Origin: a virus
Length of the DNA: 26,397 bases
Strand: one strand, 5' to 3'
Virus record (IMG/VR): IMGVR_UViG_3300030012_002724
Coordinates: 1-26,397 of that record
The notes beneath the pieces were generated by a model. The model saw nothing but the letters and a program-made list of their open reading frames with translations. It had not been told where the DNA came from and made no database searches. Within the stretch, counting starts at the first letter, position 1, and each line of letters opens with the position of its first letter. A program made the translations under genes and the position numbers. Positions 6,212-26,397 of this stretch are shown one piece after another.

Positions 6212-8645
6212 ATCGAGGTTCAAATTCCGCTAAATCAAATCCATCTAAAGTGTCTTCATTGGATTCAAAATTTTGAGGTGGTAAATTATTTTTACGTTGA
6301 TTTATAAGTTGTGATTGTTGAGTGTTTTGTTGACTGATACGTTTTTTCTTTGCTTCTTCTCTAGAATCTTCTCTATTAGACAATGCTTGTTCACTTATGT
6401 TTCTTAATTGTAAATTGTAATTAAATTCTTGCTCCATCAATTGAGCTTTAAGTTGAGCTTCGGCTTGTTGTTTTTCTATTTCAAAAGCTATTTCTGCTTG
6501 TTTTACTTGTATTTTGCCTTGTGTTTCAGCCTGCATTTTTTGCATTGCAACTTGAGCAGCCATCTCTTGAGATTGGATTTGGTTTTGGCTAATCATTGCT
6601 TGTTTTTGTAATTCTTGCTGCTGGTCTTGCTCTTGTTTAGATTTGCGTTTTACCTTTAATAATTGGTTTGCAAGTTTTATATTTTTGATTTCACGTATAT
6701 CTATAGCATCTTCCAAATTTATATCTTGCTTCGATAATGCCATTTGAATATTTTGCTCCAACATAGCTTTTTGCTCTTCATCTGGAGCTAACTCTATAAA
6801 GACACCAAAATCATATATATAAAGTTCAGATATTTCACCTAATATACTAACATTAAATTTCCCAATTTTATTAATAAAATCTTCTTTAAAATCTGAATAT
6901 TCTAAGATGTCCGCAACTCTGTATGTTATTGCTTCTGAAAGCCCTCTGTATATATACAGACTTCCATCTAAAATATGTCTTGTTGCTGTATTAGAATTTA
7001 GAGCTGCTAATTTTTGAACTCCAACCAAAGACTCAGGAGAAGGTGTGCTTCCATCACGAGCTTCATTCAAACCTGTAACTGCACGTATCATATCTAAATA
7101 ATGGTTGTAATTAGCAATAAGCATTTGTGTTTTTGATGCTCCTGAATTAGAAGTTAGTTGCTGGATAGGAACTCTACCTTGGTTAAAATCTCCTTCTTGA
7201 GTATAACTTCTACCCACCACACTACCAGTTTGAAAATATAGTCTTAAAGCATCTTCTGGATTATATGCCGAACCTGTTCCTAAATCTACCTCATTAAGTC
7301 CATCAGCATCAATATATACCCCATCAGGAACAGTTCGGGCTATAACTTGTTGTAGTTTTAAATGTGTTATTTGTATCAAGTCAGCAAAAGGTATCATTCT
7401 TCTAACTAAAGATTCTATAACTCCTTTATACATTCTTGGTGCTACCGCTATGTAATTAGGTAATGCATGCTGAGAAGATGATTGAGGTCTTACCATATTT
7501 TTAGCAAGCTCCCATTTTAATATGATATTTGTACCCATAACCATAATACCCTCATACCAAACATCAATTGTTTTTTCTAATTTTTCAAACTTACCTTCTT
7601 CCATCATTTCTTTTGGTGGATTAAAAGTATCATCTTTTTCAATAACTCTTGAACCACCACCATCTAGCTTTCTTTTTTTATAAACCATTTTTTTAGTGGT
7701 TTTATAATTAAAGTACATTAAGGTGCAAGTGTCTCTGTAAAATATATCATTTTCGTAAAACTGTGCAACATTATAATAATTATACCAGCTTTGGCTATAT
7801 TTAGTTATTTCTTCTAAATCTGCATTGGTAAGTTTTGGGTCTATTTTTAAAAGTTCAACTACAGGTAAAGTTTTGATTTCACCCCAATAAAAACAATCTT
7901 TGAAATGTGGGTCTTCGGTATAGCTATAAACCACATTTGCTGGGTCAACATAAGATATTTTAACACCAGCGCCAGGTAAAAACTCATGTTTTGCAACCGA
8001 CATACCTAGAACTGTACTATCATAGTCTATTTGTTTTCTGATATCATCGTAATGATTTTCTTCAAAAACAGTATTGATTGCTTGCTCTTCTGCAATTTCA
8101 ATAGCTGGTTTGTAGTTTAAATTCATGTATAAATTTAATTCTTCATCGTTTTCTGGTAAATCATCAGGATTCATAGTAAAAGGATTGAAACCTGTTGTGT
8201 CTTGTACTACCGACAAAACATCTTTAGCGGCCATTTGACCTTCTACCATATCTTGATATTTACTTCTTTTTGATTGAGACAATGCATCTTGAGCAAAAGC
8301 TTTTACTTTAAACTCTCTATCTTGCATCCCGTTTACAACGATATCTACAAATTTTGGTAATATAGGAACTGGTGTCCAATCTAAATTTAAATAAGATAAA
8401 TCACCATCTACAGCTAACTCATTTTTATACTTAGCAATAGACTGTTCTCCTCTAGCATATAATCTTAAACGGTGAAAATCTCTCCATTGATTATAATACC
8501 TACAATTATTTCCATCTTTTTTAAACCATTCGTACTGAATAGCCTGCCCTATTTGAAGTCCAAACTCATCTGTAGCTTTTTCTGCATCAGAAACAAATTG
8601 ACTAGGGAAGCCAACAGATGATATATCTATAGTAACATCCTTCAT
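6210..8645 (-). CDS. Portal protein
   Basis: 811 residues, the size of portal proteins in crAss-like and related podoviruses. The N-terminal part has NLDWTPVPILPKFVDIVVNG and QDREFKVKAFAQDALSQSKR, then a helix-rich body with VDPANVVYSYTEDPHFKDCF. A clip/stem region around residues 440-560 includes DLIQITHLKLQQVIARTVPD and MIRAVTGLNEARDGSTP. From about residue 655 the chain is Gln/Glu/Lys-rich and coiled-coil (QEQDQQQELQKQAMISQNQI onward), which would form the helical barrel inside the head. It starts directly after the terminase stop, as is usual for portal genes. No promoter between the two; a terminator closes the unit. Confidence 0.8.
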   Translation of the reverse strand: MKDVTIDISSVGFPSQFVSDAEKATDEFGLQIGQAIQYEWFKKDGNNCRYYNQWRDFHRLRLYARGEQSIAKYKNELAVDGDLSYLNLDWTPVPILPKFVDIVVNGMQDREFKVKAFAQDALSQSKRSKYQDMVEGQMAAKDVLSVVQDTTGFNPFTMNPDDLPENDEELNLYMNLNYKPAIEIAEEQAINTVFEENHYDDIRKQIDYDSTVLGMSVAKHEFLPGAGVKISYVDPANVVYSYTEDPHFKDCFYWGEIKTLPVVELLKIDPKLTNADLEEITKYSQSWYNYYNVAQFYENDIFYRDTCTLMYFNYKTTKKMVYKKRKLDGGGSRVIEKDDTFNPPKEMMEEGKFEKLEKTIDVWYEGIMVMGTNIILKWELAKNMVRPQSSSQHALPNYIAVAPRMYKGVIESLVRRMIPFADLIQITHLKLQQVIARTVPDGVYIDADGLNEVDLGTGSAYNPEDALRLYFQTGSVVGRSYTQEGDFNQGRVPIQQLTSNSGASKTQMLIANYNHYLDMIRAVTGLNEARDGSTPSPESLVGVQKLAALNSNTATRHILDGSLYIYRGLSEAITYRVADILEYSDFKEDFINKIGKFNVSILGEISELYIYDFGVFIELAPDEEQKAMLEQNIQMALSKQDINLEDAIDIREIKNIKLANQLLKVKRKSKQEQDQQQELQKQAMISQNQIQSQEMAAQVAMQKMQAETQGKIQVKQAEIAFEIEKQQAEAQLKAQLMEQEFNYNLQLRNISEQALSNREDSREEAKKKRISQQNTQQSQLINQRKNNLPPQNFESNEDTLDGFDLAEFEPR

Positions 8646-10892
8646 TTATGTTAACAATTCACTTACTGTTCCTTTATTAGTATACCTTGCAAAGTTAAGC
8701 TTTATTTTTGATTCTTTTTTTTGCGGTAAATACATATGTTTTTGATTTGCCATAATAGCCAAACCTGAACTTATGGTGGCATCATATTGAGTTCTATTAC
8801 TTATATCAAATTTAGCCCAATCTTCTAATGTCCTGGTAAACAACATAGAACCCATTGTATCACTTTCTCTAAACTGACCTTCAAAATCTAAACCTACGTT
8901 TTTCTCTATATAAGATTCTATTGCTGCCGCATGAGACTGTTTGACATCTTCCGAAGAGTTTGGTATACCACCTAGCTCCTTTTCACTTTTAGATAATTTA
9001 TTAAGATGTTTATCGGGTCTGTTCATACAAAAACCCCTATAACCTCTATTTTTAAAATGATACAACAGTCTAGGTTTGTTGTTTTCTATAAGAATAGGCA
9101 TGCTGTAAAAAACACAAGCCATCAAAACCTCTTCAAAAAATATCTCTGCTGTTTGAGGTCTAGCTATGTATTCTAGAAAAAACTCATTACTGGGCGCATC
9201 CTCCATGCTAAATTTTGTTAAACCATGTAAAGCACCATTTGAACCTCTTCCTCCAACAGTTCCAGATATATCATATGAATCACACCCAAACGCACCAATA
9301 TGTTCGTTCATTGGAAATTTACCATTTCTTCTATCAAGAACTTTATTTTGAAGTGATTTTGGAGGAATCCAGCTCACTTGAAACCTACCACTTTTATCAG
9401 GTCTAAATATAACCTTACTGTCTTTTATACCATTGTCCCAGTAAAAACTACCTCTAGTTATATGATGTTGCATTATCAAAGAATCATTGTAGTCTATTTG
9501 TTGATATATTTTTGTTAAATTAAACAAAGAACCTTTACTCTCATCTCTGAACGCATGAGACTCAGAACGTGGAAACTGTCTGTAATATTCATTCAAAGCA
9601 TCAGCGTCAGATTTTAATGATTCTACTTCAGCTTTCCAATAATCGACAGCCCCGTTGTATATCCATTCATTATCAACTCCTTTAACTTTGTCATGAGGTT
9701 TATTTAAAACTGGTTGACCGTATATGTCAATAAAACCTTCCATGTTCCATTCCATAGGTATAAATAAACTATATAAACCACTTTTTGTTTGACCATTAGC
9801 ATTTCTAGACTTTACATTAGAATCTTCATATAGTTTTTTAAAGTTATTGCCACCTTTATCTAAAGCATTTGAAGTTGAACCCATCAAACACTTGCCAATT
9901 ATTTTACTACCTAATCTCAAACAGGTTTTAGTGACTCTCCAGTTGTTTAAAATGTTATTTGGTTTTATCCATTTTCCACTTTCGTCATGCACTAATAGTA
10001 AAAGTTTTTCCCCATCATAAGAGTTATCATCTGTGTTTTTCCAATCTATCGTAGTATCTAACCCTGTTAGTTCATCATCAAATATTTCGTGCATATTTTT
10101 TTTGGTAATTTTTGAAGCGGGAACTCTAAAAGCTAGCTCTGTTTTTGGTTTGTCCATACCATCTTGTATTGGTTTAAAAAAGAATGGAAGTCGGTTTGCT
10201 ATTGGAACAACTTTGTCTGTAAACATTTTTTTTGAATCAGCTCCTGTTTTAGATAGTATCCCAACTCTAGAATCTTTAGCTAATGTTCCTGTGTTAACAC
10301 ACTCTGATGAACCCATAAAAGAAAAACCAGACCTTCTTATTTTTAAATATATCATTCCAAAACTTCTGGTATCAGCTTTACATGCTTCCCAAAATATGTA
10401 AAATAACCTATTTGCTTCACGATAATCTGGGTATCCCACATCTATAGTAGACCATTGTAAATACATGTAATGAGCTCCTGTAATATATGTGGGTCTCCCA
10501 TTATTCATAAACCAGTAGCCTAATTCTCTATTATCGAATTCTTCTTCTATATACCCCACCCATTTTTGCTTGAACAATGAAGGCATTTCGTTCCATTGAA
10601 ATATAGACTGAATTTTGCCTAAATCTTTAGGTAAATCTTTTCTTTGCCAATATTGTTCTTTTTTGTTTACACTGCGTGCATAGCATTTTTTTGGTGTGGG
10701 TGGTAGAGCTATGATTAAATTAGATATAGAAATTATATTACCTATCTGCCCTGTTTTTGATATATTGATAAATTCATATTTGCTGTTATATCCATACTCC
10801 CAAGTTTTAGCTTTGTTTTTTCTAGTTAAAACTGAGGATGGTATATAACCTGAAAGTTTTCTATAAATACTATTTTGACCTTCGTTCTGCAA
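8646..10892 (-). CDS. terL: Terminase large subunit (packaging ATPase and nuclease)
   Basis: 748 residues. ATPase motor first: a variant Walker A at about 184-192 (KIRRSGFSF), Walker B at about 297-304 (LLLLVHDE, ending D303-E304), and a motif III-like MGSTSN near 337-342. Nuclease domain in the C-terminal part, with a likely metal-binding aspartate in GAFGCDSYDISG (about 533-544). The protein cuts and pumps phage DNA into the prohead through the portal, whose gene follows immediately. The start overlaps the small upstream gene by 23 bases, supporting translational coupling. The Walker A lacks the canonical GKT/S and has an RRSGFS core, as in several large terminases of this phage type. Longer than typical 450-650-residue terminases because of an extended N-terminus. 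Confidence 0.85.
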   Translation of the reverse strand: MQNEGQNSIYRKLSGYIPSSVLTRKNKAKTWEYGYNSKYEFINISKTGQIGNIISISNLIIALPPTPKKCYARSVNKKEQYWQRKDLPKDLGKIQSIFQWNEMPSLFKQKWVGYIEEEFDNRELGYWFMNNGRPTYITGAHYMYLQWSTIDVGYPDYREANRLFYIFWEACKADTRSFGMIYLKIRRSGFSFMGSSECVNTGTLAKDSRVGILSKTGADSKKMFTDKVVPIANRLPFFFKPIQDGMDKPKTELAFRVPASKITKKNMHEIFDDELTGLDTTIDWKNTDDNSYDGEKLLLLVHDESGKWIKPNNILNNWRVTKTCLRLGSKIIGKCLMGSTSNALDKGGNNFKKLYEDSNVKSRNANGQTKSGLYSLFIPMEWNMEGFIDIYGQPVLNKPHDKVKGVDNEWIYNGAVDYWKAEVESLKSDADALNEYYRQFPRSESHAFRDESKGSLFNLTKIYQQIDYNDSLIMQHHITRGSFYWDNGIKDSKVIFRPDKSGRFQVSWIPPKSLQNKVLDRRNGKFPMNEHIGAFGCDSYDISGTVGGRGSNGALHGLTKFSMEDAPSNEFFLEYIARPQTAEIFFEEVLMACVFYSMPILIENNKPRLLYHFKNRGYRGFCMNRPDKHLNKLSKSEKELGGIPNSSEDVKQSHAAAIESYIEKNVGLDFEGQFRESDTMGSMLFTRTLEDWAKFDISNRTQYDATISSGLAIMANQKHMYLPQKKESKIKLNFARYTNKGTVSELLT

Positions 10893-20949: not shown

Positions 20950-21384
20950 ATGCAATCTGACTACCTAAAGTACTGGAGAGTAATAAGATATTTTATTCGT
21001 GCTAAATACAAATTAACCACAGCAGATATAGAAACATTGCTTTTTTTAAAGACGGAATCTTATTTTGGTAAAGATAAATTTTTAGAGTTTAGCAAACTTC
21101 TTAGTTGGGATAAATCTAGATTTGAAAGACTTCAAAGAGATGGGTGGATACAGGTTTTTAGAAAAAGAACAGGTCAATCAAAAACTTTGTATTGTTTGTC
21201 TTACAAAAGCAAACGTGTGATAAACTCTGTTTATAAAAAACTAAATGGGGAAGAAATACCTACTTCCCCAAGTCAAAATCCATTGTTCTTAAAAAACGTA
21301 TCCTATACGGATAGAGTTTATAGAAGCATGATTAAAGATATGAATAAATTTATAAAACAACAACGACATCATTCTGAGATATAA
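20950..21384 (+). CDS. Winged-helix-like DNA-binding protein, lone plus-strand gene
   Basis: 144 residues. A helix-rich N-terminal half (YLKYWRVIRYFIRAKYKLTT then ADIETLLFLKTESYFGKDKF) leads to FSKLLSWDKSRFERLQRDGW, which suits a recognition helix, and a beta wing (IQVFRKRTGQSKTLYCLSYK). The layout is MarR/PadR-like but no confirmed family. I recall near-identical proteins in marine Bacteroidota phages. The gene is opposite to its neighbours: it diverges from the two-TM gene at 20900 and runs 35 bases into the groES 3' end. It is a candidate regulator of the minus-strand late genes. Confidence 0.6.
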   Translation: MQSDYLKYWRVIRYFIRAKYKLTTADIETLLFLKTESYFGKDKFLEFSKLLSWDKSRFERLQRDGWIQVFRKRTGQSKTLYCLSYKSKRVINSVYKKLNGEEIPTSPSQNPLFLKNVSYTDRVYRSMIKDMNKFIKQQRHHSEI

Positions 21385-21607
21385 TTGTATAGGCTTTACC
21401 TTCAATCAACATAGTATACCCAGCACGTTTATCGTAATAAATATTATCTCCTTCTTTTATAACATCGACATCAGTCCCTGGTTTTACCACTATCCCTTTT
21501 TTGTATCTTAATTGATTTGCGTCTTCTGAAGAGAGTAAAAGCCCAGATGATGTTTTTATCTCCTCTTCTATCGTTTCTATAATTATATTTCTTCCTATTG
21601 GTTTCAT
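21350..21607 (-). CDS. groES: GroES-type co-chaperonin
   Basis: 85 residues, close to the 95-97 of cellular GroES. It opens MKPIGRNIIIETIEEEIKTS, then SGLLLSSEDANQLRYKKGIV (SGLLL stands where GroES has the mobile-loop GGIVL). Next comes GDNIYYDKRAGYTMLIEGKA and a final strand VVVVL, corresponding to GD-V, DGEE and DILAIV of GroES. It caps the GroEL ring. The gene ends the chaperonin operon; three small genes separate it from groEL. Its 3' end overlaps the plus-strand winged-helix gene by 35 bases. Confidence 0.85.
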   Translation of the reverse strand: MKPIGRNIIIETIEEEIKTSSGLLLSSEDANQLRYKKGIVVKPGTDVDVIKEGDNIYYDKRAGYTMLIEGKAYTIISQNDVVVVL

Positions 21608-21610
21608 TCA

Positions 21611-21823
21611 TCAGTGAAATTTAACATCGTAGTATCTAAAATAAGGGGCAACTTTTTTAACAGAACTTGTTTCAATCCACTCGCCAAGCTTATCATAAGA
21701 TTCTACAGAGGTAATAATTATTTTATGAGAGTCTCCAGGCCCAAACTCTTGATAAGAATAAGAACTAGGAGACACCTCAAAATGTCCAACTGGTTTACCT
21801 TTGATAGCTAAAGTTGTCTTCAT
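21611..21823 (-). CDS. Small beta-rich protein in the chaperonin operon
   Basis: 70 residues: MKTTLAIKGKPVGHFEVSPS, SYSYQEFGPGDSHKIIITSV, then ESYDKLGEWIETSSVKKVAP. Looks like a single small beta domain. No recognised homologue. It lies 3 bases before groES and overlaps the secreted-protein gene by 29 bases, a long overlap that supports both starts or suggests a later start. Confidence 0.5.
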   Translation of the reverse strand: MKTTLAIKGKPVGHFEVSPSSYSYQEFGPGDSHKIIITSVESYDKLGEWIETSSVKKVAPYFRYYDVKFH

Positions 21824-22058
21824 AAATTTTTTCCATTACCACCAAGAAAGCTCTGTTGTAGCCATCTTTATACCCAGTCATAAAAGGGTCGGCAGGAAGA
21901 GGGCATGGGGGCACAGGTACTAAAGATGATGGATACGTAGCTCCATAAGCATAGTCCCATCCAGCGATGTAACCATCCTCCCAGCCTTTACAATAGTCTT
22001 TTTCTGATATAGATGTGAACGAGACACATAATATAAATATTAATAATAAATGCTTCAT
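21795..22058 (-). CDS. Small predicted secreted/periplasmic protein
   Basis: 87 residues. The N-terminus MKHLLLIFILCVSFTSISEK is a signal peptide by eye (basic n-region, hydrophobic core, small residues near 15-18; FILCVS could also be a lipobox-like site). The mature part has paired Y/G-rich elements: YCKGWEDGYIAGWDYAYG and FMTGYKDGYNRAFLVVMEKI. G-Y/W-x-x-G-Y repeats like these appear in small exported proteins of marine phages. Starts by a 4-base ATGA overlap with the 44-residue gene. Confidence 0.6.
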   Translation of the reverse strand: MKHLLLIFILCVSFTSISEKDYCKGWEDGYIAGWDYAYGATYPSSLVPVPPCPLPADPFMTGYKDGYNRAFLVVMEKIYEDNFSYQR

Positions 22059-22189
22059 AGTGATGTTGTTGGTTTTTCTTCTACTAACTTAGTTACTTTG
22101 TATCCGTTTTTTTCTAACAAAGTTTTTGCTTCATGTATTTTTCTAAGGACATTACTTTCGTCATCCCAAATTTGATTATGTATTACCAT
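22055..22189 (-). CDS. 44-residue protein between groEL and groES
   Basis: Reads MVIHNQIWDDESNVLRKIHE then AKTLLEKNGYKVTKLVEEKP, ending TTSL. Helical, with a pattern of a small adaptor. It starts 11 bases after the groEL stop and joins the next gene by ATGA. Support is tight packing; function unknown. Confidence 0.5.
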   Translation of the reverse strand: MVIHNQIWDDESNVLRKIHEAKTLLEKNGYKVTKLVEEKPTTSL

Positions 22190-22199
22190 TTTTGTTTAT

Positions 22200-23810
22200 T
22201 TATTTATTTGTTATTTCTCTTGCCATAGTTACTATAGCGTTGGTTGATAAAATAGTTATAGCTACAGAAACAGCATTTTGAAGTGCGGTCTTTGTAACTT
22301 TCATAGGGTCTATAATTCCCATTTTCAGCATGTCTCCATAGACATGTTTCTTTACATCGAACCCTTCATTATTTTTTTCGGGTGGATATATTTGTTCCTC
22401 CTCAAGTCCAGCATTTTTAAGTATCTGTACGAGGGGAGCACGAAGTGCACTTGACAAAACTGCGTAAGCAGTTTTTTTTGCCGAATAAACACTCTCGTGT
22501 CCTGACAACTGATTATAATAATCGTAGTAATTGTACAAAGCTAATCCGCCACCAGGTAGTATTCCTTCTTGTAATGCGGAACGCACCGCACAGACTGCAT
22601 CATCGACTCTATCATAAAGTTCCTTCTGCTCTAGGTCAGTGTTACCGCCAACGTATATAACACCAATCCCTCCTGTCAACGATGCGATTCTCGACATTAT
22701 AAAATCTTTATCAGCTTTTTTTGTTGCGAGCTTATTTGCATCCCATAATTGTTTTACTCTCTCTTTCACCTCTGGGGTTTGTTTTTTACTATCTTTCAAA
22801 ACAATTGTGCTGTCTTTCGATACAATCACTTTATTAGCATGACCCAAATCATTAAAAGATATTATACTTAAATCATCTCCTGTCTTCTCTGAAAAATAAG
22901 TAGCACCAACCGAGAGGGCTATATCCTGCATCAGTTCATGTTGTTTGTAACCAAAGGAGGGTGGAGTAATGTTACAAATCTTCAAACTATTCTTCATGAC
23001 ATTAGCTGCCAACGTGTTTATCACGTTTGTAGAACAGGGTGCTACTATTAATAATTTCTTTCCCTCGGCTATGATTGGTTTTAAAACATTCTCGATGTTA
23101 AGCAGGTTTACAATCTCCGCATCTGATACCAAGATGTGCACATCATCTAAAATACACTCATCCTTTTTGTGGTTATTGATAAAAAGAGGAGAGGTGTAGC
23201 CTCTATCAATTTTCAATCCATCTGTGGTTTCATTATACGTTTCTGAAGTTTGTGAACGCTCTACTGTAACAATACCATTTTTACCAACCGAGTTGTAGGT
23301 GTCTGCAATAATCTTACCAACATCTTGGTCGTTGTTCGCAGATATAGTAGCTACATCTTTCAGCATTTGTTTTGTAACTGGTTTACTATCTTTTTTAAGT
23401 CTTTTGATTAATTCTTTTGTTTCATTCAAAAGCTCTCTCAATATCTCTGTCTTGTTATCGAACTGACCTATGAGCTCCATACCTGATTTTACCAATGCCT
23501 CTGTTAGAACAATTGCAGTGGTCGTACCATCACCTGCATTGGTTGCTGTTCTATCAGCAGCTTCACGCATCATACGAACAGCTAGGTTCTCCACAGAATC
23601 TAAAAGTGCAATAGACTTTGCAACTGTTACCCCATCCTTGGTGACAGTTATTCCGTGAGTGTGTTCTGGTGATTCAATTATGACAGTATTACCCATTGGC
23701 CCAAGCGTGCTTTTCACAGCCTGCGCCATTTTGCTAATACCATTGATTAGCTTTTGTTGTGCCTCAGAACTAAAGTGTAATTCTTTTGGCGAGTATCCCC
23801 CTTGCTCCAT
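22200..23810 (-). CDS. groEL: GroEL-type chaperonin (phage-encoded)
   Basis: 536 residues, near the 548 of E. coli GroEL. The ATP site is intact: TLGPMG at about 35-40, TKDG at 57-60, GDGTTT at 93-98, RVDDA with D404 matching the catalytic D398, and PGGG at 419-422. The apical region has IDRGYTSPLFINN and PSFGYKQHELMQDIA, which in cellular GroEL bind GroES and substrate. The C-terminal GGM tail is missing and several conserved residues differ (for instance TLGPKG to TLGPMG), so this is a divergent phage copy rather than a recent host copy. First gene of an operon that ends with groES. Confidence 0.9.
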   Translation of the reverse strand: MEQGGYSPKELHFSSEAQQKLINGISKMAQAVKSTLGPMGNTVIIESPEHTHGITVTKDGVTVAKSIALLDSVENLAVRMMREAADRTATNAGDGTTTAIVLTEALVKSGMELIGQFDNKTEILRELLNETKELIKRLKKDSKPVTKQMLKDVATISANNDQDVGKIIADTYNSVGKNGIVTVERSQTSETYNETTDGLKIDRGYTSPLFINNHKKDECILDDVHILVSDAEIVNLLNIENVLKPIIAEGKKLLIVAPCSTNVINTLAANVMKNSLKICNITPPSFGYKQHELMQDIALSVGATYFSEKTGDDLSIISFNDLGHANKVIVSKDSTIVLKDSKKQTPEVKERVKQLWDANKLATKKADKDFIMSRIASLTGGIGVIYVGGNTDLEQKELYDRVDDAVCAVRSALQEGILPGGGLALYNYYDYYNQLSGHESVYSAKKTAYAVLSSALRAPLVQILKNAGLEEEQIYPPEKNNEGFDVKKHVYGDMLKMGIIDPMKVTKTALQNAVSVAITILSTNAIVTMAREITNK

Positions 23811-24040: not shown

Positions 24041-24066
24041 AGAAAAGGTAGCCCAAAACTACCTTT
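24038..24066 (-). terminator. Rho-independent terminator of the 24.1-24.5 kb genes
   Basis: Minus strand stem AAAGGTAG / CTACCTTT with loop TTTTGGG, then TCTTTTT. It lies about 29 bases past the stop at 24095 and borders the phased repeats. Confidence 0.75.
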
Positions 24067-24094
24067 CCATCATAAACCAACTCAAAACAAATAT

Positions 24095-24319
24095 TTAGAG
24101 AAGACCTCTAAATTTCTTCATATCTTCAGCTCTTTCGATTCCGTCTGCAATTCTTTTAATTTTTCTGTCTTCCTTAATTATTCTTTTCATATTAGCTGCT
24201 TGCTGAATACCTGTCATAGAGTTCATCCTGCCATTTATCAACCTGCCGTTCTTAATATAAAGACCATCAACAAAATTGTCTTCAGAACCTGTTCTCAAAT
24301 GTGTGTGTCCGTGTGCCAT
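24095..24319 (-). CDS. Small conserved phage protein, function unknown
   Basis: 74 residues: MAHGHTHLRTGSEDNFVDGL, YIKNGRLINGRMNSMTGIQQ, then AANMKRIIKEDRKIKRIADG. The N-terminus has HGHTH, a possible metal-binding cluster; the C-terminal half is a long charged helix. Starts 1 base after the stop of the 44-residue gene and ends before a strong terminator. Confidence 0.55.
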   Translation of the reverse strand: MAHGHTHLRTGSEDNFVDGLYIKNGRLINGRMNSMTGIQQAANMKRIIKEDRKIKRIADGIERAEDMKKFRGLL

Positions 24320-24897: not shown

Positions 24898-25761
24898 ATG
24901 GCAAGAAATTTATTACAAATCGAGACAGACTTTATCCGACAAGAGGATATCGCCGAAGGTCTGCAATTGCGAAAGGTCAATGCGACAATTCGTACTATGA
25001 ACAATCATGGTTTTACTAGATTTAACAAAGCTTTAGGTCTAGCAAAACTTATGCTAGAGGTCAAGACATGGTTTGAGACTGATAGTACACAAGCTAAATT
25101 CAGCGAGGCTGGTATTAGCTGGACAATTGGAGACTTAGCTGACAAAATATTCCACAAGGATAGAAGCTGGTTTACTAGAGGTTGTCAAGTTGCGACAATC
25201 CATGATACTAGAATTGAGGCATACATTGAGTCTATCAAGTATATTCAATCTAAAGGTTTTACTTGTAATCCATCAATAGAGAAAGCTATCAAATACCATA
25301 AAATTTTCTCCAATATTGAGGAGTATACTCCGATACTGCAAGCTTACATGAGCCAAATAACTCCGTATGCTGAGCATGAAAATCTAGCTAACGTTATGTT
25401 CATTCCATTAAACTGGAAAGAGATTGAGAGAGTTATAGCTGAGCACAATGATACTGCGACTTCAAGTAGTAATTCTGAAAATACGCTCTCCAGAGAAAGC
25501 ATTTCTGGAAATACTAATGAAAACCAAGTATCTGCAAGGGCTGAAGTTGAGTCCAATGATGCGCCACGCACAAGCACAATTCCAAATCAATTAAGAGGTT
25601 ATGTAACTCGACAAGACATTGAAAATTTGGTAAGCTTATCAGCTGACAACAAGACTAATGTTCTTGAAATGATGATGGAACATATGTCTGATACAGAGAG
25701 ATATGCGATGATTGAAAAGATGTGTACTAGATTTGATTTAACCTTAAATATTGAAGCATAA
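24898..25761 (+). CDS. Unrecognised 287-residue protein, first of the plus-strand operon
   Basis: No family recognised. The first 160 residues look helical with a possible DNA-binding part (ISWTIGDLADKIFHKDRSWF, then TRGCQVATIHDTRIEAYIES). Residues about 182-225 are Ser/Asn/Glu-rich and probably unfolded (TATSSSNSENTLSRESISGN). The C-terminal 60 residues are helical again (YVTRQDIENLVSLSADNKTN; MMMEHMSDTERYAMIEKMCT). The two-domain layout with a flexible linker is common in regulators or replication factors. Strand and position after a dyad-rich region suggest an early gene. It overlaps the amidoligase-like gene by one base (TAATG). Confidence 0.6.
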   Translation: MARNLLQIETDFIRQEDIAEGLQLRKVNATIRTMNNHGFTRFNKALGLAKLMLEVKTWFETDSTQAKFSEAGISWTIGDLADKIFHKDRSWFTRGCQVATIHDTRIEAYIESIKYIQSKGFTCNPSIEKAIKYHKIFSNIEEYTPILQAYMSQITPYAEHENLANVMFIPLNWKEIERVIAEHNDTATSSSNSENTLSRESISGNTNENQVSARAEVESNDAPRTSTIPNQLRGYVTRQDIENLVSLSADNKTNVLEMMMEHMSDTERYAMIEKMCTRFDLTLNIEA

Positions 25762-26397
25762 TGGGACTAATATATACTTTAACTGGAGAGACTGCTAGAG
25801 CACAAATACGTGGTTATGGGAACTCTCCTAGAGAACTAGCACTTCACCGAGGTGCAATGGAAGATGATGTGAAAAACATCAAAACCAAAGTCCACAAATG
25901 CAATGATGCTGGGACAATATACCAGTCAAACTTTAGCATAGGCTTTGAGATTGAGAAAAACAATTTTTTAGGTCGTAGCAGAGTTATGGCTGGTGTTACT
26001 GAATACGAAATGTTCAGAGGTTACGAGAGAGATGGTAGTTGTGGAGTTGAAGCAATAACACATGTACTACCTCTTGTACCGCCATCTCCATGGAGAAACA
26101 AAGTTTTCGATATGTTCTACAAAGCTAGACCAATTATTGAAGACTCGCATTCTCCAAGTAACATCAGTTGCGGTGGTCACATTACGATTGGATTATCTCC
26201 TAATTGCGAATTGTCCACAAGAGAGTTTTGGGCTCGTTTAAGACCCTTTACTGGACTTTTGATGTCCCTGTACCGAAAGAGGCTAAAGAACTCTTATTGC
26301 AATACTAATTTACGTATGGGTGGACATGAGACTGGAGTTGCTGACAACATCGGTAGCTTTCACTACAAATACCAGTTTGCCCTCTTAAAGAGTAGTG
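25761..26397 (+). CDS. Amidoligase-like protein (partial, runs off right edge)
   Basis: ATG at 25761 overlaps the previous stop as TAATG; 212 codons, no stop in window. Visible motifs: SIGFEIEKN (about 59-67), the type of G-x-E-x-E strand that binds Mg-ATP in amidoligases; YERDGSCGVEAITHVLPLVP (about 88-107), like the E-x-D-x-S...E.-P element; and CGGHITIGLS (about 137-146), like the G-H-x-H/G strand. Then a helix ARLRPFTGLLMSLYRKR. This matches the amidoligase_2 plan (COOH-NH2 ligases of the glutamine-synthetase fold), known in peptide-tagging and wall-linked gene sets. Substrate unknown. Confidence 0.55.
   Translation, partial: MGLIYTLTGETARAQIRGYGNSPRELALHRGAMEDDVKNIKTKVHKCNDAGTIYQSNFSIGFEIEKNNFLGRSRVMAGVTEYEMFRGYERDGSCGVEAITHVLPLVPPSPWRNKVFDMFYKARPIIEDSHSPSNISCGGHITIGLSPNCELSTREFWARLRPFTGLLMSLYRKRLKNSYCNTNLRMGGHETGVADNIGSFHYKYQFALLKSS

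What the first reader, a model, noticed from the sequence alone, without database searches (positions are those of the whole stretch)
24898..26397. Coupled pair: unknown 287-residue protein and amidoligase-like enzyme
An amidoligase-like enzyme in a phage, translationally coupled to an unknown two-domain protein, could modify a protein, peptide or cell-wall component. The motifs (GFEIE, ERDGS...E, GGH) are visible but the family call is by eye, and the C-terminus is missing. The next genes, beyond the window, may include a glutamine amidotransferase partner as in some amidoligase gene sets.
Basis: partly seen in the sequence, partly recalled or inferred. Interest (0 to 1): 0.6.

Follow-up and report, generated by a model that had tools for sequence, protein, structure and literature searches.

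The report
Phage amidoligase with glutamine amidotransferase partner
A bacterial virus carries a very divergent enzyme of the glutamine-synthetase fold, predicted to join an amine to a carboxylate, beside a protein of unknown role; in related viruses an ammonia-supplying partner enzyme lies close by, so this looks like a slimmed-down version of a known but, as far as I found, biochemically unexplained phage gene set.

Summary
A 287-aa gene (24898-25761) overlaps, as TAATG, an ORF with amidoligase motifs. The window ends because the 27,395-base record has a 10-N assembly gap at 26398; the rest of the enzyme (GVIEFRIP...) follows it. No Pfam, PHROG or NCBIfam model detects it. Three tests agree it belongs to the glutamine-synthetase-like amidoligases: (i) 48 relatives compared with phage Amidoligase_2 proteins give hhalign score 60.5, against at most 24 for 43 controls; (ii) an AlphaFold2 model (pLDDT 93.9) of an intact relative finds only glutamine synthetases in its 50 best PDB hits; (iii) 36 of 37 near-invariant residues are kept across the gap.

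The predicted glutamine amidotransferase is real in relatives: all 67 related loci with at least 2.5 kb downstream encode a class-II glutaminase, in nearly all fused to a gamma-glutamyl cyclotransferase, with intact catalytic residues. An unrelated phage (C75C1) pairs the same fusion with a bona fide Amidoligase_2, and Chitinophaga carries an overlapping amidoligase-GATase pair. This is a reduced relative of the phiEco32/LUZ24 "peptidoglycan modification" cassette, without ATP-grasp or PF14395. Amidation is likely; the substrate is unknown (cell-wall peptide favoured). The upstream family has no solved fold and unknown function.

The parts
24898..25761 (+). 287-aa protein of unknown function, first gene of the rightward operon; member of a family of about 180-290 aa (helical N-terminal domain, linker, small C-terminal beta-beta-alpha domain in the family model)
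   Evidence: ORF; family in 81 of 84 loci, directly upstream of the amidoligase-like gene with no gene between in 70 of 81; AF2 of relative L009 pLDDT 90.5; no PDB fold match at E<=0.001
25759..25763 (+). TAATG stop/start overlap, likely translational coupling
   Evidence: sequence read directly
25761..26397 (+). N-terminal two thirds of a divergent glutamine-synthetase-like amidoligase; continues beyond the assembly gap at record 26408-26731
   Evidence: family HMM E=5.6e-73 for this part and 5.4e-38 for the part after the gap; hhalign to phage Amidoligase_2; AF2 and Foldseek on an intact relative
25941..25958 (+). GFEIEK motif (predicted metal/ATP-site strand, by analogy)
   Evidence: I68, G69, E71, E73, K74 (P0006 numbering) at 97% or more in the family, kept in the window; aligns with GIEVELE of phage Amidoligase_2
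26025..26054 (+). ERDGSCGVEA motif
   Evidence: E92, D94, S96, C97, G98, E100 invariant in 80 relatives; aligns with DGSL..G.E of Amidoligase_2
26169..26180 (+). CGGH motif
   Evidence: C140, G141, G142, H143 invariant in 80 relatives; aligns with CSTHVH of Amidoligase_2

Best explanation
The second gene encodes an ATP- and Mg-dependent amidoligase of the glutamine-synthetase-like fold: the E/D/H/R motifs bind metal and ATP, activate a carboxylate as an acyl phosphate and let an amine or ammonia attack it. In intact relatives the ammonia is most likely supplied by a class-II glutaminase encoded close downstream. In nearly all of them the glutaminase is fused to a gamma-glutamyl cyclotransferase-like domain that could trim gamma-glutamyl products. 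The unit is a reduced version, lacking ATP-grasp and the PF14395 ligase, of the amidoligase cassette of phiEco32/LUZ24-type podoviruses. Its most likely target is a carboxylate of host cell-wall peptides, altering the envelope early in infection. The 287-aa protein, made from the same message, is probably an accessory or specificity factor. Shown here: homology to the amidoligase superfamily, predicted fold, conserved residues, gene linkage in relatives. Inferred: catalysis, ammonia transfer, substrate, role of the 287-aa protein. My estimates: amidoligase fold and superfamily 0.93; glutaminase-fed amidation 0.65; cell-wall substrate 0.35. The overall figure below refers to the enzyme class and its partnership, not to the substrate.
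For: hhalign score 60.5, E 1.2e-7 over 188 columns with the motifs in the same order, versus at most 24.0 for 13 other families and at most 22.6 for 30 column shuffles; AF2 pLDDT 93.9, pTM 0.92; the 50 best PDB matches are all glutamine synthetases or a close relative (GmaS), best E 2e-4; BFVD matches include many named amidoligases, e.g. Pseudomonas phage tf I2FLP2; 36 of 37 near-invariant residues kept in the window protein across the gap. Partner: GATase-family gene in 67 of 67 loci with at least 2.5 kb downstream, glutaminase residues C2, R, H, N, G, D and GGCT residues YGTL, E invariant in 64 of 64, Pfam GGACT 7.5e-18 and GATase_4 6e-5 for the MW202828 protein. Independent pairings: phage C75C1 with a true PF12224 protein (E 3.5e-30) plus the same fusion at 41% identity; Chitinophaga overlapping pair L123; second pair in L002. 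Known cassette: and PMC5498523.
Against: No direct Pfam match for any of 49 members, and no PHROG or NCBIfam match for the window protein. Foldseek TM-scores to glutamine synthetases are low (about 0.3), so the likeness is remote. The 84 loci are related phages with conserved gene order throughout, so constant linkage in them is not by itself proof of joint function. The amidotransferase is not visible in this record. There is no direct evidence for any substrate.
Confidence: 0.75

Rival explanations
1. A soluble metabolite enzyme: the set makes or turns over gamma-glutamyl amides or small peptides (glutathione-like compounds, nitrogen salvage) as an auxiliary metabolic module.
For: GGCT and glutaminase domains are glutamate/glutamine enzymes; a deep-sea Planctomycetes phage with amidoligase, GATase, glutathione synthase and GGCT is discussed as aiding nitrogen use (PMC10945688).
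Against: No relative of the phage ATP-grasp ligases in 15 records, with LUZ24 ringing as positive control. The published growth effect was not traced to single genes in the passages read.
Confidence: 0.25
2. A protein-modifying system: amidation or peptide conjugation on a host or phage protein, with the 287-aa protein as substrate or adaptor.
For: Almost strict adjacency of the 287-aa family and the enzyme (70 of 81) and TAATG coupling in the window.
Against: The 287-aa family is variable (mean column identity 28%), more than a substrate with a fixed modification site would suggest, and in L003 and L002 the two genes are apart.
Confidence: 0.2
3. DNA or nucleotide hypermodification, with the amidoligase adding an amine to a modified base.
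For: Only that the genes lie in the early region beside replication and recombination genes.
Against: No base-modification genes were noticed among the conserved neighbours; this was not tested systematically.
Confidence: 0.06
4. The motifs are chance or the fold is unrelated.
For: No Pfam match.
Against: Profile-profile scores, fold matches and conservation in 80 relatives.
Confidence: 0.03

Closest known systems
Amidoligase_2 (PF12224) phage enzymes: phiEco32 gp84, LUZ24 gp18, UFV-P2 ORF23, phage C75C1 WJE88166
   Same: Order of motifs (GxExE, DGS..G.E, C..H, R, EFR), homology by profile-profile comparison, glutaminase and GGCT genes nearby
   Different: Not detected by the Pfam model; own conserved block SCGxEA...LPL...WR...SPS...CGGH; about 14% identity in the alignment
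'Peptidoglycan modification cassette' of RIO1-like, phiEco32 and LUZ24 podoviruses (PMC5498523, PMC3890496)
   Same: Amidoligase, class-II glutaminase and GGCT encoded together in the early region
   Different: No ATP-grasp ligase and no PF14395 ligase found; glutaminase and GGCT are one fused protein in nearly all relatives; unrelated 287-aa-family gene in front
Glutamine synthetase
   Same: Predicted fold (best PDB hits)
   Different: Much smaller; no sequence-level PDB match; low TM-score
Chitinophaga eiseniae amidoligase-GATase pair (L123)
   Same: Homologous amidoligase (A5 model E 6e-14) and overlapping class-II GATase
   Different: Chromosomal; no GGCT domain; resembles the second pair of L002 more than the window's family

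Membership tests
Pfam Amidoligase_2 (PF12224) | Match to the curated HMM above 22 bits | tested here: not met
   No match for the window protein or any of 49 members at E<=1; not filed as a PF12224 member
Glutamine-synthetase-like amidoligase superfamily | Statistically supported homology to known amidoligases | tested here: met
   hhalign 60.5 against a control maximum of 24.0; 84.0 when bridging sequences are added
Glutamine-synthetase-like amidoligase superfamily | Glutamine-synthetase-like fold | tested here: met
   AF2 of intact relative, Foldseek against PDB and BFVD; remote, TM about 0.3-0.5
Glutamine-synthetase-like amidoligase superfamily | Conserved metal/ATP residues in the complete protein | tested here: met
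   36 of 37 near-invariant positions kept over the two halves; their catalytic roles are inferred by analogy
Glutamine-synthetase-like amidoligase superfamily | ATP-dependent amide-bond formation | not testable with these tools
   needs enzyme assay
Podovirus peptidoglycan modification cassette | Class-II glutamine amidotransferase in the cluster | tested here: met
   in relatives only: 67 of 67 testable loci; this record ends too early
Podovirus peptidoglycan modification cassette | Gamma-glutamyl cyclotransferase | tested here: met
   in relatives only: fused to the GATase in 64 full-length proteins with invariant YGTL and E; absent from the L002 GATase
Podovirus peptidoglycan modification cassette | ATP-grasp ligase | tested here: not met
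   none in 15 records with LUZ24 as positive control; one marginal hit, E 0.0037, in a flank of L005 was not confirmed on that whole record
Podovirus peptidoglycan modification cassette | PF14395 COOH-NH2 ligase | tested here: not met
   phmmer with LUZ24 gp16 and phiEco32 gp86 found no hit in the related loci, which are flanks of up to about 10 kb rather than whole genomes

The most novel reading that the evidence does not exclude
A separate amidoligase family of phages, possibly infecting Bacteroidota, works with the co-translated 287-aa family as a dedicated two-component modifying enzyme, the small protein supplying the substrate or its recognition, on a target different from that of the phiEco32-type cassette.
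Probability: 0.2. Interest if true: 0.6.

Novelty: new variant of a known kind. Interest (0 to 1): 0.42.

Why it matters
Phage amidoligase cassettes recur in very different phages, yet I found no paper in the held library that establishes their substrate biochemically. This family strips the cassette to an amidoligase plus a glutaminase-GGCT fusion, which makes it a simpler unit for finding the product. It also identifies an unannotated family encoded in at least 80 environmental phage contigs.

Tried and rejected
Pfam, PHROG and NCBIfam scans found no family for either window protein, nor did Pfam for 49 relatives of the enzyme or Pfam and PHROGs for 44 of the 287-aa family. The weak DUF3818 and phrog_9577 hits of the 287-aa protein (E 0.013 and 0.0045) are not shared by relatives and were rejected as chance. 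PDB sequence search gave nothing. Folding a central member of the 287-aa family gave a confident model but no PDB match at E<=0.001. The idea that this family equals LUZ24 gp17, the gene before the LUZ24 amidoligase, was rejected (hhalign probability 0.2%). A RimK (PF08443) scan of whole records was discarded because LUZ24, which has one, did not ring; it was replaced by a phage ATP-grasp profile with LUZ24 as positive control. The single window sequence alone does not reach Amidoligase_2 by hhalign (probability 1.4%); the family alignment is needed. The 'Erythrobacter' contig L122 holds only a fragment beside masked bases and was not used. A count of Bacteroidota-type -7 elements was only weakly above chance and was not used. 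A search of plasmids for the enzyme found nothing.

Full report
Observation. The window is the first 26,397 bases of a 27,395-base viral record. A 287-aa ORF (24898-25761) is followed by an ORF starting at 25761 that shares one base with its stop codon (TAATG). The second ORF is open at the window's end because the record has ten N at 26398-26407. After the gap a 108-codon stretch ending in a stop (record 26408-26731) reads GVIEFRIPNRVQ.... Each half matches the family model on its own, at model positions 5-206 and 208-299. Taken literally the ten N would put the two halves out of frame, so the run is best read as a placeholder.

Relatives. A single-sequence search found one viral contig (L002) and one GenBank phage, MW202828. 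A three-member alignment then found 219 candidate relatives in IMG/VR, of which 80 loci were kept. The family has near-invariant residues in the blocks IGFExEK, ExDxSCGxEA, LPL, WR, SPS, CGGH, R174, N183, ExR (218-220), RY (234-235) and Y268, numbered on the L002 protein. The window protein keeps 36 of 37 positions conserved at 97% or more, over the two halves.

What it is. No Pfam, PHROG or NCBIfam model matches. I therefore built an alignment of phage Amidoligase_2 proteins from phiEco32, LUZ24 and UFV-P2, whose membership Pfam confirms, and their relatives. hhalign against 48 members of the new family gave probability 94%, E 1.2e-7 and score 60.5 over 188 columns, with the motifs in the same order. 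The E-value is for one pairwise comparison, so controls matter: thirteen other families scored at most 24.0 and thirty column-shuffled versions at most 22.6. Adding C75C1, MEP402, Chitinophaga and the L002 paralogue as bridges raised the score to 84. An AlphaFold2 model of the intact L002 protein has pLDDT 93.9 and pTM 0.92. The fifty best PDB matches listed are all glutamine synthetases or the related GmaS, and many viral matches are named amidoligases. TM-scores are low (about 0.3 for PDB, 0.3-0.5 for named viral amidoligases), so the relation is remote. The four closest BFVD entries carry no name in the tables at hand.

Neighbourhood. In 84 loci (including the window and its own record) the enzyme is present by construction and the 287-aa family occurs in 81. 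In 70 of those 81 the two genes are directly adjacent. A third family encodes a class-II glutaminase, in nearly all members fused to a gamma-glutamyl cyclotransferase domain. It is present in 67 of 67 loci with at least 2.5 kb downstream (in L002 it lies upstream, next to a second amidoligase). Catalytic residues of both domains are invariant in 64 of 64 full-length fusions. Because these phages share gene order broadly (GroEL, replication genes), this constancy alone is weak evidence of joint function. Independent pairings are stronger. Phage C75C1 pairs a bona fide Amidoligase_2 (E 3.5e-30) with the same fusion. Chitinophaga eiseniae has an overlapping amidoligase-GATase pair, homologous to the second pair of L002. 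MEP402 has an overlapping pair. LUZ24 and phiEco32 carry both genes. ATP-grasp was not found in 15 records, with LUZ24 as positive control, and PF14395 relatives were not found in the flanks.

The 287-aa family. It is variable (mean column identity 28%). The model of a central member shows a helical N-terminal domain, a low-confidence linker and a beta-beta-alpha C-terminal domain, with no PDB match at E<=0.001. The window's protein is one of the divergent members (mean identity to others about 21%) and has an expanded C-terminal part. Its function is unknown; an accessory role is inferred from adjacency only.

Mechanism. By analogy with glutamine synthetase, the enzyme should phosphorylate a carboxylate with ATP and transfer ammonia or an amine, the ammonia coming from glutamine via the partner. 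The GGCT domain may remove gamma-glutamyl groups. Literature on the larger cassette proposes changes to peptidoglycan peptides that block superinfection (PMC5498523; PMC10580990, citing Iyer et al. 2009, which is not held). That is a prediction in those sources, and nothing here identifies the substrate.

Host. Suggestive only: the GroEL's nearest named relatives outside this group are Flavobacterium phages at 38% identity, and the only chromosomal relative accepted is in Chitinophaga.

Verdict. It is a known kind of phage system in an unrecognised, reduced variant; the new points are the divergent family, the tight pairing with a small protein family of unknown fold, and the glutaminase-GGCT fusion as its regular neighbour.

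Noticed in passing
L002:7010-8218 and 8245-9156: A second, paralogous amidoligase next to a class-II GATase without a GGCT domain, in the same phage as the main family member.
   Followed up: partly
L123:9479-11448: Chromosomal overlapping amidoligase-GATase pair in Chitinophaga eiseniae; in a sample of 199 genomes of its order it was the only one with a match.
   Followed up: partly
L124:4216-6897 (phage C75C1): A true Amidoligase_2 occupies the slot upstream of the same glutaminase-GGCT fusion, suggesting exchange of the ligase around a kept partner.
   Followed up: yes
L003:19269-21032 (MW202828): The amidoligase carries an extra N-terminal part of over 200 residues without a family match.
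   Followed up: no
window 20950-21384: A rightward gene among leftward late genes, apparently the family conserved in 66 of 84 related loci (cluster 5) and called 'repressor protein' in MW202828; possible regulator.
   Followed up: no
window 21350-23810: Phage-encoded GroES- and GroEL-like genes, divergent from the early operon; GroEL is kept in 72 of 84 loci.
   Followed up: partly
window 24042-24068: Hairpin with a T run (minus strand), terminator-like, between the GroEL gene and a small ORF at 24095-24319; the scan found no more such sites than expected by chance.
   Followed up: no
L122:2341-2802: A fragment of the same enzyme in a contig binned as Erythrobacter, next to masked bases; probably a chimeric or contaminated contig.
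   Followed up: no
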